Shown here: positions 19,909-62,515 of the stretch, piece by piece | How the letters are laid out: every line of letters starts with the position of its first letter | How positions within the stretch are numbered: the first letter of the stretch is position 1 | DNA from: Candidatus Gastranaerophilales bacterium | Lineage (GTDB): Bacteria; Cyanobacteriota; Vampirovibrionia; Gastranaerophilales; Gastranaerophilaceae | Assembly: GCA_944326425.1 (NCBI GenBank) | Contig: CALVDX010000007.1 | Coordinates: 1-64,000 of the forward strand | Direction: 5' to 3' | Length of the DNA: 64,000 bases | The notes under the pieces: generated by a model | The model's input: only the letters and a program-made list of their open reading frames with translations | Database searches by the model: none | Told to the model about the DNA's origin: nothing | Position numbers and translations under genes: made by a program

Positions 19909-20160
19909 TTAAGCCAGATAGTTAAAAGTTTCTTTTTGAGACTCGTCAGTGATTATCTTTTTTTCACAAAAGTCTTTCCATAATGCTATTTTATGGAACA
20001 TTTCTTCCATTGTATTTTGAGGAGTGCTGTTTTCCTTTTTTGCCCCAAAATAATTATAATGGTCGTAATGACTATTTTTTACTGCAGGTTTTGCAGTATT
20101 TCCCCCTAAATATGAATTGTTTTTCGCAGATGATAAACTGGAAATTGCAGACACTAACAT
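19909..20160 (-). CDS. Unknown small protein (83 residues)
   Basis: AAGGAGTG eight bases before the ATG supports translation. It starts MLVSAISSLSSAKNNSYLGG, has a polar linker rich in Asn/Lys/His/Tyr, and ends in an amphipathic helix (MEEMFHKIALWKDFCEKKI). No signal peptide or known domain is visible. It is divergent from the giant helical gene at 20380. Confidence 0.7.
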   Translation of the reverse strand: MLVSAISSLSSAKNNSYLGGNTAKPAVKNSHYDHYNYFGAKKENSTPQNTMEEMFHKIALWKDFCEKKIITDESQKETFNYLA

Positions 20161-20379
20161 GCAAAATTCACTCCTTCTAAACTAATTTTACCATGGAGAA
20201 AATAAAAAAACAATAATCCTGAAGCAGAATTTTTTTTAGTAATATAGTTTAATTTCGGGGCTATAATGTAACAAAATGTAAATATTCTTCAAAAAACGTT
20301 AAAGTTTTCTGCAAAAGATACCGTAATACAGAGAGTAATGTAGTACAGGTATGTGTTAATCCAAAGAAAGGAGAAATAT

Positions 20380-23292
20380 ATGACGACGGATGTATCACAA
20401 ATGATAGCAGAATACCGCGCTAAGAATCCGGTTGAGACACTATGTAAAACGGATAAAGAAGTGGCGAATATGATGCTTGCCCAACCCGGAGCATTGACTT
20501 ATCTTGAAATGGAAGCTCTAATGAAAGCATTTAGCGGAGAGCCGGATCCGATTGGCGATATGGCGGATTTTTCCGGTAAAAAAACATCAGAGGTTGATGA
20601 CAGCAAGTTTGCTAAGTATATGCCTCAAGGGGATGTTCCTGCACCTAAAGATTCTAAAAAAGGATGGCTGGCTGCTGCTATCGGCGGTGCAGTTGCTATC
20701 GGTGCAGCCTTTTTAACCAGAGGAAAAGGCGGTAAAGCAGTAGCAGCATTTGAAAAAGCCGCTGCCGGTAATGCCGGTAAGGTGTTCAAAGGTGTAGCCG
20801 GTGCCGCAGCAGGAGTGACAGGTGCAGCAGCACTGACAAGCTGCAGCGAGGATTTTACATACGCTCCGGACACAGATATAGATTTTAATGTTACATTTGA
20901 TATATCTGATCTTACGGTACGGTTAGATGAGCTTATTGCACAGAATTCTGCAAATACAGCATTATTTCAAAGCATGCTTGATTATATTGAAAAACTAACT
21001 GAAAACCAAGTAGAGCTTTCCAATACTATAAAAACCATGTTAAATGATATACTGACTATCTTAAATGATATGAAAACAGGTGATGATGAAAGAGCTGTTC
21101 TGCTGGAAAAGATTCTGGATGAAATCGTGAATGGAAAAGAAGAAAATCAACAATTGCTGAAAGATATTCTGGATATTATTAAGTCATTTAAAGATGAGCA
21201 AAGCGGCTTTAATAATATGGTAGTTGCGTTGTTGAATGAAATGCTTACTAAGCTTGACAGCATGGATAATACAAACAGAACATACTATGATAAGATACTG
21301 AATGCCATAAATGAACTTGCTATGGGAAATACTGAATCGGCAGAAAAATTTATGGATGTTCTCAACAAAATCTGGGAAGCTATTAATTCAGGAAATGAAA
21401 TTTCATCTAGTCAACGGGCAATTCTAGATGCAATCTTAACAGCAATTACAGAGATGAAGAATACTGCGCCTGAAGTTGCAGAGGAAATCTCCAGCTTCTT
21501 GAATCAGATACTTGATGCTGTTAATAAAAATAACAACCTTACATCAGAACAAACGGTTCTTATTAACGCAATTCTTGAGGCTGTTACCGGTATTCAAGAG
21601 GGAACTCCTGAAACAGTCGAAAAACTTACTGAATTCTTGCAGAAAATACTTGATGCAGTTAATGAAAATAACAACTTTACATCAGAGCAAACGGTTATTC
21701 TTAATGGAATTCTTGAAGCTGTTACTTCTCTTCAAAATTCTACTCCTGAAGCAGCTGAAAAACTTACAGCTATGCTGCAAAAAATTCTGGATTCTGTTAA
21801 CAACTGTACACAGGTTAATGTTGACGGATTTAATGCAGTTATTGAAGTTCTTAAATCTATTAAGGCTGCTGATGCTGAACAGGCAGAAAATATTGCTAAC
21901 CTAATAAGTGATATGTGGGAAGGTATTGTTGCCGGTAATCAGGAAATCATTAATGCTCTTAAAGAGCTTAGTACGTCCGGTGCTGCTAATAATAAAGAAC
22001 TTATGGAATTTATTCAAGGGCTTTATGATAACTCACAAATCAGTGCCGATGAACGTACTGATAAGATTGTTGATGCAATTAACAGTGTCGGTCAAATGGT
22101 TGCAAAACTTGAAGAAACTGTTAAGACTACAGGTGATGCTATTTCAAATGCTATTCAGGATCTTGGTACAAAACTGGATGCTCTTCTTAAAGCTTATCAG
22201 GAAGGCAATGCAACAACCCAGGATGTATTATCTGAACTGCGTACAATTATTAACGCCCTTAATGAAAATAACGGTTTAACCAGTACAACCAATGAATATC
22301 TGCAAGAACTTCTCAATAAAGCAGATCAAATAATTAATGGCGGCGGTGATTTTGTAGATTATACTGAAATCCTTAATCAAATCCTTGATGCAATCAACAA
22401 TGTTGCAGCCGGCATTGAAGATATTAAGATTGGCATGGGCGAAAACAATGACGATATTGTTGCTGCTTTAGAACAAATCATTAATAATCAAAATGTTCAA
22501 ACGGATGCGCTTAATGAATTTGCTGCCGCAAGTACTGCAAATCAACAAAAATTGATTGAACAAGGTAATACAATTATTGAAAAATTAGAAAAAATCAGCG
22601 GTGACTTAGGCCAAGGTATTGCTACCATAATAGAAAAGCTAAAAGACAGCGATGCACAGCTTGCTGCGGAACTGGCGGCATTAACCGAGGCTCTTGGGCT
22701 TAAGATGGATGATAATGCTCAGGATATCGTAAATGCAATCAACGGTTTGGAAGGTAATCTGACAGCTATTGAAGAGGCTATTAAAAACCTGATCGATGTT
22801 GCAGGCAATGATAATCTTGATTTAACAACTACAAATAACTTAATACAAACAGTTATTAACCTGTTAAGTAATCAAAGCGATCCTGCTTTTGACCTAAGTG
22901 AAGTTACTTCATTACTTGCTGCAAACAACGATTTGTTGGAACAGCTGCTTAATAAAGAAACAGGCGGGTCAATTGATACCGGTGCAATAGAAAATGCATT
23001 GGCAGAGATATTAGATGTTATACGTAACATGAATGTTGGCGGCGGATCAGGAGGTGTAGATCTTACTACAACAAACAACCTGATACAAACCTGTATCAAC
23101 CAGTTGTCACTGTTAGTACAAGCGCAGTCTACAAATGCAGATATCATGGCAAGTGTAACAAATCTTGGAACGCAGTTGACAGAAGTTATTTCCAACTTGC
23201 AATCAGGTAATGTTACTACTGATGAAATTAATGCTAAACTCGATGAAATTATGGATGCTATTAATCAGCTTTCAAATAGTATTAATTCATAA
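20380..23292 (+). CDS. Giant helical repeat protein with internal lipobox-like LTSC
   Basis: The protein has 970 residues from ATG 20380, which follows AAAGGAGAA; an in-frame ATG 27 bases earlier lacks such a site. Residues 1-90 are a globular helical start. Residues about 95-155 hold two hydrophobic Ala/Gly stretches and end in LTSC (Cys155), which has the form of a lipobox but lies far from the N-terminus. The rest is almost wholly amphipathic helix built of repeats. The clearest are three 46-residue copies at about 347-484 (pattern ILEAVT..Q..TPE..EKLT..LQKILDAVN.NN..TSEQT), and a later VDLTTTNNLIQT pair. The function is unknown; a long rod or surface fibre is one possibility. Confidence 0.85.
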   Translation: MTTDVSQMIAEYRAKNPVETLCKTDKEVANMMLAQPGALTYLEMEALMKAFSGEPDPIGDMADFSGKKTSEVDDSKFAKYMPQGDVPAPKDSKKGWLAAAIGGAVAIGAAFLTRGKGGKAVAAFEKAAAGNAGKVFKGVAGAAAGVTGAAALTSCSEDFTYAPDTDIDFNVTFDISDLTVRLDELIAQNSANTALFQSMLDYIEKLTENQVELSNTIKTMLNDILTILNDMKTGDDERAVLLEKILDEIVNGKEENQQLLKDILDIIKSFKDEQSGFNNMVVALLNEMLTKLDSMDNTNRTYYDKILNAINELAMGNTESAEKFMDVLNKIWEAINSGNEISSSQRAILDAILTAITEMKNTAPEVAEEISSFLNQILDAVNKNNNLTSEQTVLINAILEAVTGIQEGTPETVEKLTEFLQKILDAVNENNNFTSEQTVILNGILEAVTSLQNSTPEAAEKLTAMLQKILDSVNNCTQVNVDGFNAVIEVLKSIKAADAEQAENIANLISDMWEGIVAGNQEIINALKELSTSGAANNKELMEFIQGLYDNSQISADERTDKIVDAINSVGQMVAKLEETVKTTGDAISNAIQDLGTKLDALLKAYQEGNATTQDVLSELRTIINALNENNGLTSTTNEYLQELLNKADQIINGGGDFVDYTEILNQILDAINNVAAGIEDIKIGMGENNDDIVAALEQIINNQNVQTDALNEFAAASTANQQKLIEQGNTIIEKLEKISGDLGQGIATIIEKLKDSDAQLAAELAALTEALGLKMDDNAQDIVNAINGLEGNLTAIEEAIKNLIDVAGNDNLDLTTTNNLIQTVINLLSNQSDPAFDLSEVTSLLAANNDLLEQLLNKETGGSIDTGAIENALAEILDVIRNMNVGGGSGGVDLTTTNNLIQTCINQLSLLVQAQSTNADIMASVTNLGTQLTEVISNLQSGNVTTDEINAKLDEIMDAINQLSNSINS

Positions 23293-23312
23293 GTTGTACA
23301 AACAAAGCAGAG

Positions 23313-23345
23313 GGGCGCGGTTTATGCAAGCCGCGCCTTTTTTTT
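23313..23345 (+). terminator. Rho-independent terminator of the helical repeat gene
   Basis: GGCGCGG (23314-23320) pairs with CCGCGCC (23331-23337) across a 10-base loop, followed by eight T. It lies 21 bases after the stop codon and is the cleanest terminator in the window. Confidence 0.93.
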
Positions 23346-32183: not shown

Positions 32184-33485
32184 TTACACAATTACGTTTG
32201 AGTTTTTCAGTTGGTTCATTTCTGCGATTAATCTATCAAAACCTGCTTTGTCGATATTGCCGTTTGTAGCGTATTTGTTAAATATCTTAGTAAGTTTAAC
32301 CATATCGTAAGCATCCATATCAACTGTATCGTGGTATCTGCTGCCTGCGCCGTATGCTGTGTCTGCTGTTGCTCTCATTGCGTCGGCTTCATAACCTGAT
32401 AAGTATGCTATGAATTCGTCAAATGAGATTTTGTCGTCACCGTGTGCATATTCTTCAAATATTTTGTCAGAGTTTTTAGTAACCTGTGCAATACTTGCAT
32501 CGTTGTGGTTTAATAACCAGGAACCGAATGTAGAGCCGACTTTTACACAGTTACCGTTTTGTTTATCTCTGCCGTCGAATGTTACTGTTGTAACTTCCGC
32601 ATCTGCTTCAGACCAGTTTTGTGTTACGTTTTGGTTTTTAGTTTCGTCAATATTTTTGGGTTTTGCTACTTCGTCGGTACAATTTTCACTAAATTTATTG
32701 AATGTTGTACCATCCGGAAGCTTGTATTGTTTTGTATCAGGATCATATTTGAACGCTGTTTTGTTGCCTTGTTCATCTTTATAAATAACATATACATTGC
32801 CTGCGCCGTCTTTTGCTAATTGTAATCTGTTATTGTTCCAGGCTTTATCAAGGCCTGCAGCTTTTTCATCAAGCCCGATTGATGTCCAGAAGTTTTTGCG
32901 TGCTTCTTTTGCTTCTTCTGATGATAACGGATTCTTAGGGTTGCCTTTATCGTCTAATAAATCATCAAGGTTATATTTGTTGTCTACGACTTCCGCCTCT
33001 TTCTTAGGTGGAGTTGGCGGTGTTTGCTCTACCGGTTGAGTTGGTTGAGTCGGTTGAGTTGGTTGTGTAGGTTGTGGTTGTTGTGTTTGGGTGCTTACTT
33101 TACCAATAGTAGAATATTGTCCGGGAATGTACGGATTGTATGGGTTATACGGGTTATAGCTGCTATAGTTATTATAGCTGTTATGACCGCAAGTACATCC
33201 GCCGCCTTGTTGACCGCCGCCAAACCAGCCGCCGTTGCCGCCGAAAATGTTGCCGAGTAAGCCGTTGCCGCCGAAGAGACCGTTAAATATGCCCATTCCT
33301 AAGCCTATGCCGATACCTTTACCGAACATTGGCCAGAAACCGCCGCCGAAGCCAAATCCAAATCCGCCGTAACATCTGCCGCTGCGTCTTGAACCGTTAA
33401 AGATGTTAATTACTTTGGTGTTCCTGATATTTACACCGCCGTGGCAATGTCTTGCGTCGAAGTTACAAGGTAAAACCCAGACCAT
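32184..33485 (-). CDS. Gly-rich, PTQ-repeat protein with EF-hand-like C-terminus
   Basis: The protein has 433 residues; the family is not recognised. Order of parts: a His/Cys start (MVWVLPCNFDARHCHGG), a Gly/Phe-rich segment (about 35-95), an Asn/Tyr/Pro segment with YNPYNPYNPY, and a PTQ repeat (five units, about 140-155). An acidic folded region (about 170-340) is followed by two EF-hand-like helix-loop-helix units (DKISFDEFIAYL and FNKYATNGNIDKAGFDRLI). The EF loops lack some calcium-binding acidic residues. A GAGG site precedes the ATG. There is no classic signal peptide. It may be a scaffold or surface protein; this is a guess from composition. Confidence 0.8.
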   Translation of the reverse strand: MVWVLPCNFDARHCHGGVNIRNTKVINIFNGSRRSGRCYGGFGFGFGGGFWPMFGKGIGIGLGMGIFNGLFGGNGLLGNIFGGNGGWFGGGQQGGGCTCGHNSYNNYSSYNPYNPYNPYIPGQYSTIGKVSTQTQQPQPTQPTQPTQPTQPVEQTPPTPPKKEAEVVDNKYNLDDLLDDKGNPKNPLSSEEAKEARKNFWTSIGLDEKAAGLDKAWNNNRLQLAKDGAGNVYVIYKDEQGNKTAFKYDPDTKQYKLPDGTTFNKFSENCTDEVAKPKNIDETKNQNVTQNWSEADAEVTTVTFDGRDKQNGNCVKVGSTFGSWLLNHNDASIAQVTKNSDKIFEEYAHGDDKISFDEFIAYLSGYEADAMRATADTAYGAGSRYHDTVDMDAYDMVKLTKIFNKYATNGNIDKAGFDRLIAEMNQLKNSNVIV

Positions 33486-62188: not shown

Positions 62189-62515
62189 TCAGGGTGTTTT
62201 ATTAATAGTTTGCTTAGTGTTATTATCTTCGTCATTGTTATTATTTTTATCAAATTCATGCCCGATAATTGCTCCGCTTGCCGCAGAAAGGGCTGTATAT
62301 ACGGCAATAATAGGGAGAGAAATTCCTCCAAGAATAGCCGTTCCTATAACTGCACCAAGAGCTCCAGCTGTTCCGAACAATCCGCCTATCGTTTTTGTGT
62401 ATGTGTATTTGCCCTGAAAAACCGGTGTAAGTTGTGTAGTATGTGTGATTGTATGTGTTTTGGGGGCTGTTTGTTTATGAGGGATGTAATAATTGTTAAT
62501 TGATTGAATTTTCAT
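62189..62515 (-). CDS. Small membrane protein with MKI-INN N-terminus
   Basis: The protein has 108 residues. It starts MKIQSINNYYIPHKQ, with FQGKY near residue 33, then a Gly/Ala-rich hydrophobic hairpin (TIGGLFGTAGALGAVIGTAILGG and LPIIAVYTALSAASGAIIG, about 42-86), and an Asn/Asp-rich tail. The hydrophobic part looks like a two-helix membrane or glycine-zipper segment. The start resembles the 962-residue protein at 9535. Opposite-strand frames here are shadows. Family unknown. Confidence 0.7.
   Translation of the reverse strand: MKIQSINNYYIPHKQTAPKTHTITHTTQLTPVFQGKYTYTKTIGGLFGTAGALGAVIGTAILGGISLPIIAVYTALSAASGAIIGHEFDKNNNNDEDNNTKQTINKTP

What the first reader, a model, noticed from the sequence alone, without database searches (positions are those of the whole stretch)
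20380..23292. 970-residue helical repeat protein with a lipobox far from the N-terminus
An Ala/Gly hydrophobic segment ends in LTSC at residue 155, followed by about 800 residues of amphipathic helical repeats, including three 46-residue copies that remain close at the DNA level. A signal-like segment this far in is abnormal. The gene has its own strong terminator. It could be a surface fibre anchored in an unconventional way, or a cytoplasmic scaffold.
Basis: partly seen in the sequence, partly recalled or inferred. Interest (0 to 1): 0.55.

Follow-up and report, generated by a model that had tools for sequence, protein, structure and literature searches.

The report
Surface-type lipoprotein with buried signal
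A bacterium related to cyanobacteria encodes a long helical protein whose fat-anchoring signal seems to sit about 150 residues inside the protein instead of at its start, and the same odd arrangement recurs in many genera of its family on quite different proteins, which points to an undescribed variant of how bacteria make anchored envelope proteins.

Summary
The ORF, LTSC at Cys155, helical repeats and terminator are real; only two repeat copies are close at the DNA level, not three. Translation does start far upstream: AGGAG at that start in 21 of 21, an SD-backed start near the lipobox in 0 of 21.

The arrangement recurs in the host's family. In 57 distinct junctions the Cys lies at residue 61-222 and the last charged residue before it is K/R in 57 of 57 (background 652 of 1349). 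Loci found through an unrelated C-terminal domain show it in 28 of 30, 16 of 18 if genes already seen are left out. It is not universal: 10 of 24 family genomes gave no signal match. The class-search hit opened outside the family is an ordinary lipoprotein.

Lgt, LspA and Omp85 are present. Most likely: an acidic helical lipoprotein stalk exported through an internal signal behind a conserved N-terminal extension. Lipidation, cleavage and surface location are not shown.

The parts
20369..20373 (+). Shine-Dalgarno AGGAG of the upstream start
   Evidence: sequence; present in 21 of 21 proteins compared
20380..23292 (+). CDS, 970 aa
20380..20544 (+). N-terminal extension, conserved small helical domain (residues 1-55)
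   Evidence: AF2 four short helices, ten-residue means 65-73 in residues 1-50; dN 0.109, dS 0.595 against L015
20662..20718 (+). further hydrophobic stretch, residues 95-113 (hydropathy above 1.4 in 6 of 7 orthologues; not listed as a separate peak in L019)
   Evidence: topology unresolved
20788..20844 (+). internal lipoprotein-type signal, Lys137 to Cys155 (K, uncharged Ala/Gly-rich stretch, LTSC)
20833..20844 (+). lipobox LTSC; Cys155 codon at 20842-20844
   Evidence: S154 and C155 invariant in 7 of 7
20896..22029 (+). amphipathic helix repeats, about 22-residue period (residues 173-550)
   Evidence: copy number varies among orthologues
21496..21771 (+). two close tandem copies of a 138-nt (46-residue) unit, 80% identical
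21817..23289 (+). most conserved part, C-terminal residues 480-970
   Evidence: low-confidence model
22819..22851 (+). DLTTTNNLIQT motif, copy 1 (residues 814-824)
   Evidence: invariant in 7 orthologues; DLTTTNNL also in the paralogue
23059..23091 (+). DLTTTNNLIQT motif, copy 2 (residues 894-904; residue 904 varies)
23309..23342 (+). intrinsic terminator

Best explanation
The gene encodes an N-extended lipoprotein. The ribosome first makes an extension of 154 residues. An internal signal (Lys137, an uncharged Ala/Gly-rich stretch, LTSC) then enters the Sec channel with its N-terminal side in the cytoplasm. Lgt attaches diacylglycerol to Cys155, and LspA probably cuts before it. The 816-residue, strongly acidic helical stalk is left lipid-anchored on the outer side of the inner membrane or further out in this diderm envelope. 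Its length varies by repeat number and a conserved C-terminal half forms its far end. Shown by sequence: the start, the conserved signal grammar, the recurrence in many genera, the enzymes in the genome, and purifying selection on the extension. Inferred: export, lipidation, cleavage, localisation, and a role as a surface or periplasmic stalk.
For: S154 and C155 invariant in 7 of 7 orthologues. Cys invariant in 21 aligned junctions. 57 distinct junctions: -1 is S (54) or G (3), -3 mostly L (35), last charged residue K/R in 57 of 57, 14-24 residues before the Cys with one at 35; [SG] at -1 was part of the choice for 21 of them. After thinning to 34 dissimilar signals it is 34 of 34, against 652 of 1349 background runs; the parts after the Cys are all acidic (-12 to -142, some cut by locus ends), extensions -4 to +8. 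Loci returned for an unrelated C-terminal domain carry the same internal signal in 28 of 30; 12 of the 30 had been read before through the signal, and 16 of the 18 new ones pass (overlap counted by place). AGGAG at the upstream start in 21 of 21; SD-backed start near the lipobox in 0 of 21. Lgt, LspA and Omp85 in the genome. Hits of the signal profile outside the family include canonical lipoproteins: L227, L162 and L163.
Against: The stretch is weakly hydrophobic (best 12-mer 1.44; 2.65 and 3.06 for the two convincing N-terminal lipoproteins in the sample). AF2 leaves 53-172 without confident structure. The orthologues have a second hydrophobic stretch with positive residues on both sides, so topology is ambiguous. 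No signal-peptide predictor was available. Lnt and LolC/E are not matched over their cut-offs, so triacylation and Lol export are unsupported. The signal profile gave no match in 10 of 24 family genomes. One place outside the family (L158) has LTSC inside a 176-residue frame followed by another hydrophobic stretch and could be read either way. Several g10 relatives have no Shine-Dalgarno at the start I chose. Sequences within one family are not independent, and profile searches favour hits with the signal.
Confidence: 0.7

Rival explanations
1. Uncleaved membrane protein: the Ala-rich segment stays as a signal anchor, the cytoplasmic extension and the outer stalk remain one chain, and the Cys is lipidated or simply structural.
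For: The extension is conserved and under purifying selection, as expected if it works in the final protein; the orthologues have a second hydrophobic stretch.
Against: A plain anchor would not need [ST][SG]C; -1 is S or G in 57 of 57 (partly selected) and -3 mostly L, which is cleavage-site grammar.
Confidence: 0.2
2. Soluble cytoplasmic helical scaffold; the hydrophobic stretch and LTSC are incidental.
For: AF2 gives no membrane helix; the stretch is weakly hydrophobic; helical repeats are common in cytoplasmic proteins.
Against: The lipobox is conserved in distant relatives and on an unrelated ectodomain.
Confidence: 0.05
3. Phage tail tape-measure protein or remnant.
For: PHROGs match to tape-measure families, E 1.2e-11; weak tblastn hits to phage tape measures, best E 2e-4.
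Against: The reversed mature part matches a tape-measure family just as well, E 7.3e-12, so the match is compositional. The gene is in all 6 other genomes of the genus searched, next to housekeeping-type genes in the loci read.
Confidence: 0.01
4. Substrate of an unidentified secretion route in which the extension is the targeting element and the Ala-rich segment is a secondary stop.
For: Extensions are conserved within genera and some carry an F-x-G-K type motif before the signal.
Against: F-x-G-K is not clearly enriched at N-termini in the sampled home-genome ORFs (10 seen, 7.8 expected); the extensions differ between genera while the signal is constant.
Confidence: 0.04

Closest known systems
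Bacterial lipoproteins (Lgt/LspA substrates)
   Same: Positively charged n-region, uncharged stretch, [L][TSA][SG]C lipobox, acidic mature part; Lgt and LspA in the genome.
   Different: The signal begins about 40-200 residues in, after a conserved extension; normal lipoprotein signals lie at the very N-terminus (recalled; L162, L163, L227 are examples seen here).
Extended signal peptides of autotransporters and two-partner secretion proteins (PMC2805444, passages seen, including parts of the abstract)
   Same: An N-terminal extension precedes a segment that looks like a full signal peptide.
   Different: There the extension is about 25 residues and the cargo is an autotransporter or two-partner protein. 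Here it is roughly 40-200 residues, ends in a lipobox, differs by genus, and Pfam shows no autotransporter domain.
Designed helical repeat proteins / alpha-solenoids
   Same: Regular helix-turn-helix repeats; best Foldseek matches are designed helical repeats.
   Different: No match at E 0.001 or better (best 0.041); shape of the fold only, no family relation.

Membership tests
Bacterial lipoprotein (SPase II substrate) | Lipobox with invariant Cys | tested here: met
Bacterial lipoprotein (SPase II substrate) | n-h-c signal grammar (K/R, uncharged hydrophobic stretch, lipobox) | tested here: met
   57 of 57, 28 of 30; stretch only weakly hydrophobic in the window protein
Bacterial lipoprotein (SPase II substrate) | Signal at the extreme N-terminus | tested here: not met
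   Cys at 155; 61-222 in the 57 junctions; upstream start supported
Bacterial lipoprotein (SPase II substrate) | Lgt and LspA in the organism | tested here: met
Bacterial lipoprotein (SPase II substrate) | Lipid on the Cys and cleavage before it | not testable with these tools
   needs labelling or mass spectrometry
ESPR autotransporter / two-partner secretion | Translocator or autotransporter passenger domain | tested here: not met
   no such match in Pfam or NCBIfam up to E 1
Phage tail tape-measure protein | Homology beyond composition | tested here: not met
   reversed mature part scores equally
Phage tail tape-measure protein | Phage gene neighbourhood | tested here: not met
   housekeeping-type neighbours in the window and in the orthologue loci read

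The most novel reading that the evidence does not exclude
One gene makes two proteins: LspA splits the chain at the internal lipobox, releasing a lipid-anchored outer stalk and leaving a stable membrane protein whose conserved N-terminal domain (residues 1 to about 90) faces the cytoplasm and does a job of its own, for example reporting that the stalk was exported. The bacterial family uses this as a fixed chassis on which ectodomains are swapped.
Probability: 0.2. Interest if true: 0.8.

Novelty: new variant of a known kind. Interest (0 to 1): 0.6.

Why it matters
Lipoprotein predictors look at the N-terminus (recalled), so proteins of this design would likely be filed as cytoplasmic or hypothetical. 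[quoted passage not shown] If real, it shows that the lipoprotein pathway can work from an internal signal after about 40-200 residues, gives a sequence rule (K/R, roughly 14-24 residues without charge, LTSC) for finding more such proteins, and names likely envelope proteins of these bacteria. In one genus several of these genes lie at G tracts of 10-14, as one would expect of phase-variable surface proteins.

Tried and rejected
Tape-measure protein: rejected by the reversed-sequence control. Mis-called start: rejected for the 21 proteins tested. Motif frequency in unbiased ORFs as evidence: rejected, not clearly above control residues in the home-genome sample. F-x-G-K as a targeting motif: 10 in the first 80 residues against 7.8 expected in the home-genome sample, not persuasive. 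Structure of the conserved C-terminal half: model too poor (pLDDT 46), so not searched. Pfam and NCBIfam scans of the protein and of relatives gave only weak helix-type matches below cut-off or nothing. Helical type in type-B genomes: five weak A2 matches to the helical part outside the four type-H genera were opened; none is a relative: three long coiled-coil-like ORFs without a lipobox, one alanyl-tRNA-synthetase-like and one AAA-like protein (names mine). Literature: 'internal lipobox' has 0 occurrences in the 20 papers listed of 668 holding either of two terms; no paper for internal signal peptide + lipobox, for the four-term search, or for Gastranaerophilales + genome + phase variation; the titles listed show nothing on this protein class. 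PMC12636315 (abstract and passages) is about lipidated peptides. 'Not in print' rests on these searches only; most subscription journals are not held.

Rows dropped: I left out nine candidate Cys rows that belong to other genes or chance stretches, and the re-fetched loci L075-L084. Of the 20 regions fetched, 19 hold an N-extended lipobox protein and one (L118) does not. In one search, 2 of 30 (L200, L201) failed because the reading frame is interrupted at a G tract in the extension; starts of four others (L182, L184, L185, L197) have no Shine-Dalgarno. In one search, 2 of 26 gave no candidate (L225, L229), 1 was canonical (L227), 23 were N-extended; many of these 26 are genes seen before. In one search the Cys was picked as [SG]C after a hydrophobic stretch, as a Cys after an uncharged stretch, so those features are partly selected; the sign of the preceding charge was not an explicit criterion. 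Many weak matches were not opened.

Full report
OBSERVATION. The ORF runs 20380-23292 on the + strand, 970 aa, with AAAGGAG just before the ATG and a strong terminator at 23309-23342. LTSC is at residues 152-155. The part after Cys155 has net charge -87 and calculated pI 4.05. Hydrophobic periodicity in 175-480 is 3.55 residues with a 22-residue repeat. Two 138-nt units are 80% identical; the units on either side are 48-49%, so 'three close copies' is too strong.

HOST AND ORTHOLOGUES. Of the three titled records with a full-length match, one names Candidatus Gastranaerophilales (L014; lineage). With residues 1-187 as query, 7 of 39 genomes match: the window's own and all 6 other members of the genus searched; 0 of the other 32. 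Five of the six orthologue loci have an HD-domain gene on one side and an isocitrate-dehydrogenase-like gene on the other, as in the window; L018 differs on the one side that its contig shows (gene names are mine, from the sequences). In the 7-sequence alignment S154 and C155 are invariant, the repeat region varies in copy number, and residues 480-970 are the most conserved.

THE EXTENSION IS REAL. In 21 of 21 proteins compared (7 orthologues, 5 paralogues, 9 from three other genera) an AGGAG precedes the upstream start, and no in-frame start 14-45 residues before the Cys has a Shine-Dalgarno-like site (0 of 21). Between the window and L015, dN and dS are 0.109 and 0.595 for residues 1-55, 0.101 and 1.047 for 56-94, while 95-155 varies freely (dN 0.284, dS saturated), as one would expect of a signal kept only for its character.

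THE BURIED SIGNAL IS CONSERVED. Cys is invariant in the 21 junctions, from four genera. Searching 286 genomes of the order with that profile gave 69 with matches at E 0.01, all in the host's family. Opening 20 of the weaker places gave 19 with the same architecture, including proteins whose C-terminal parts look unrelated: runs such as DTVYLPGDTVY followed by about 200 residues (no Pfam match). Over 57 distinct junctions the Cys lies at residue 61-222; -1 is S in 54 and G in 3; the last charged residue before it is K or R in 57 of 57. In uncharged hydrophobic runs of sampled ORFs, K/R precedes in 652 of 1349; 34 dissimilar signals give 34 of 34. The probability printed there, 1.8e-11, ignores shared ancestry. 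N-extended proteins were read in 15 genera of the family (g1, g2, g5, g6, g7, g8, g10, g13, g14, g18, g38, g41, g46, g48, g51; the g5 start is weak). They are not everywhere: 10 of 24 family genomes gave no match to the signal profile, although that short profile misses some carriers (G020 has the type-B domain).

A PARTLY INDEPENDENT TEST. I built a profile of the C-terminal 200 residues of the unrelated type ('type B', A6), which does not contain the signal; its 12 rows had themselves been found through the signal. It matched 73 of 286 genomes in 11 genera. Of the 30 loci returned, 28 have a Cys at residue 61-175 after K/R and an uncharged stretch. Twelve of the 30 are genes already read; of the 18 new ones 16 pass. 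The two failures (L200, L201) have the same segment, but the frame is broken at a run of 11 G inside the extension.

TWO ECTODOMAIN TYPES. The helical type (H), taken as A2 matches in genera g1, g6, g38 and g46, is in 46 genomes; none of these has a type-B match. Twelve genomes outside those genera match both profiles. The A2 matches opened there are signal-only matches of other proteins or, in the five opened for this purpose, two of them in type-B genomes, unrelated proteins without the signal; not all were opened. With so few genera the exclusion may be descent, not exchange.

ORDINARY LIPOPROTEINS AS CONTRAST. A 31-position profile of the signal alone (A5) matched 44 of 194 genomes of the class, 42 in the host's family and 2 in family f8; the f8 locus opened is a canonical lipoprotein, Cys at 19 (L227). 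In one search six places outside the family got loci; I opened five: two canonical lipoproteins (L162, L163), one multi-pass membrane protein (L159), one without a Cys in the match (L161) and one ambiguous (L158). In the window's own genome the profile gives two clear matches, this gene and the 1216-codon frame on contig C10. In 413 sampled ORFs of that genome four have a lipobox-like site by residue 40, of which I judge two convincing (L053, L067). The genome has Lgt, LspA and Omp85; Lnt and LolC/E are not matched over cut-off. PMC4040986 (passages) describes diderm envelope genes and lipid A synthesis in this lineage.

STRUCTURE. AF2 with 7 sequences: mean pLDDT 58, pTM 0.45; residues 171-480 form regular helices at ten-residue means of 69-94, 481-550 lower; 53-172 lie below 50. 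Foldseek best hit E 0.041, designed helical repeats. The C-terminal half alone is poor (pLDDT 46). A PHROGs tape-measure match (E 1.2e-11) is compositional, since the reversed mature part scores E 7.3e-12 to another tape-measure family. The same caution applies to weak similarities between distant helical relatives; shared anchors and motifs carry more weight there than E-values.

MECHANISM. I read this as export from an internal type II signal, with lipidation of Cys155 and probably cleavage, leaving an acidic helical stalk on the outer side. N-in orientation agrees with the K/R before the stretch and the acid part after it; the second hydrophobic stretch of this genus complicates topology. 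In genus g10, runs of 10-14 G or C lie upstream of or inside the extension of six of the loci examined; L108, also g10, has none. Background: 15 runs of 8 or more in 861 kb, of which 4 fall in the 100 kb of g10, so g10 is rich in such runs anyway. They are the usual sign of phase-variable surface proteins (my knowledge), but assembly error at such runs is possible.

VERDICT. Not a canonical lipoprotein (the N-terminal position is not met), but it very likely works like one. The novel element is the recurrent N-extension before the lipobox.

Noticed in passing
L105, L106, L107, L197, L200, L201 (genus g10; coordinates): Runs of 10-14 G or C upstream of the chosen start (four loci) or inside the N-extension (L200, L201) of type-B genes; in the latter two the frame from the SD-backed ATG is interrupted at the run. 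Phase-variation-like, though g10 is rich in such runs generally.
   Followed up: partly
286 genomes of the order: Helical (type H, 46 genomes in four genera) and DTVYLPGD-repeat (type B, 73 genomes) ectodomains were not found in the same genome.
   Followed up: partly
L021:2360-6004 (-), i.e. contig C10 of the window's genome: A 1215-aa relative with the same buried LTSC (Cys 80) and DLTTTNNL motifs; counterparts seen in other genomes of the genus (L045-L048, L079, L151).
   Followed up: partly
L067:14258-19939 (-): 1894-aa ORF in the window's genome with GGAI / FxxN-type repeats at its start, reminiscent (recalled) of polymorphic outer-membrane autotransporters.
   Followed up: no
window 62192-62515 (-): 108-aa ORF starting MKIQSINN, with FQGK followed by a strongly hydrophobic stretch and no Cys.
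   Followed up: no
window 19909-20160 (-): Small ORF (83 aa) divergent from the gene; the 82 residues scanned have no Pfam match up to E 1.
   Followed up: no
window 32187-33485 (-): ORF with a Gly/Phe-rich start.
   Followed up: no
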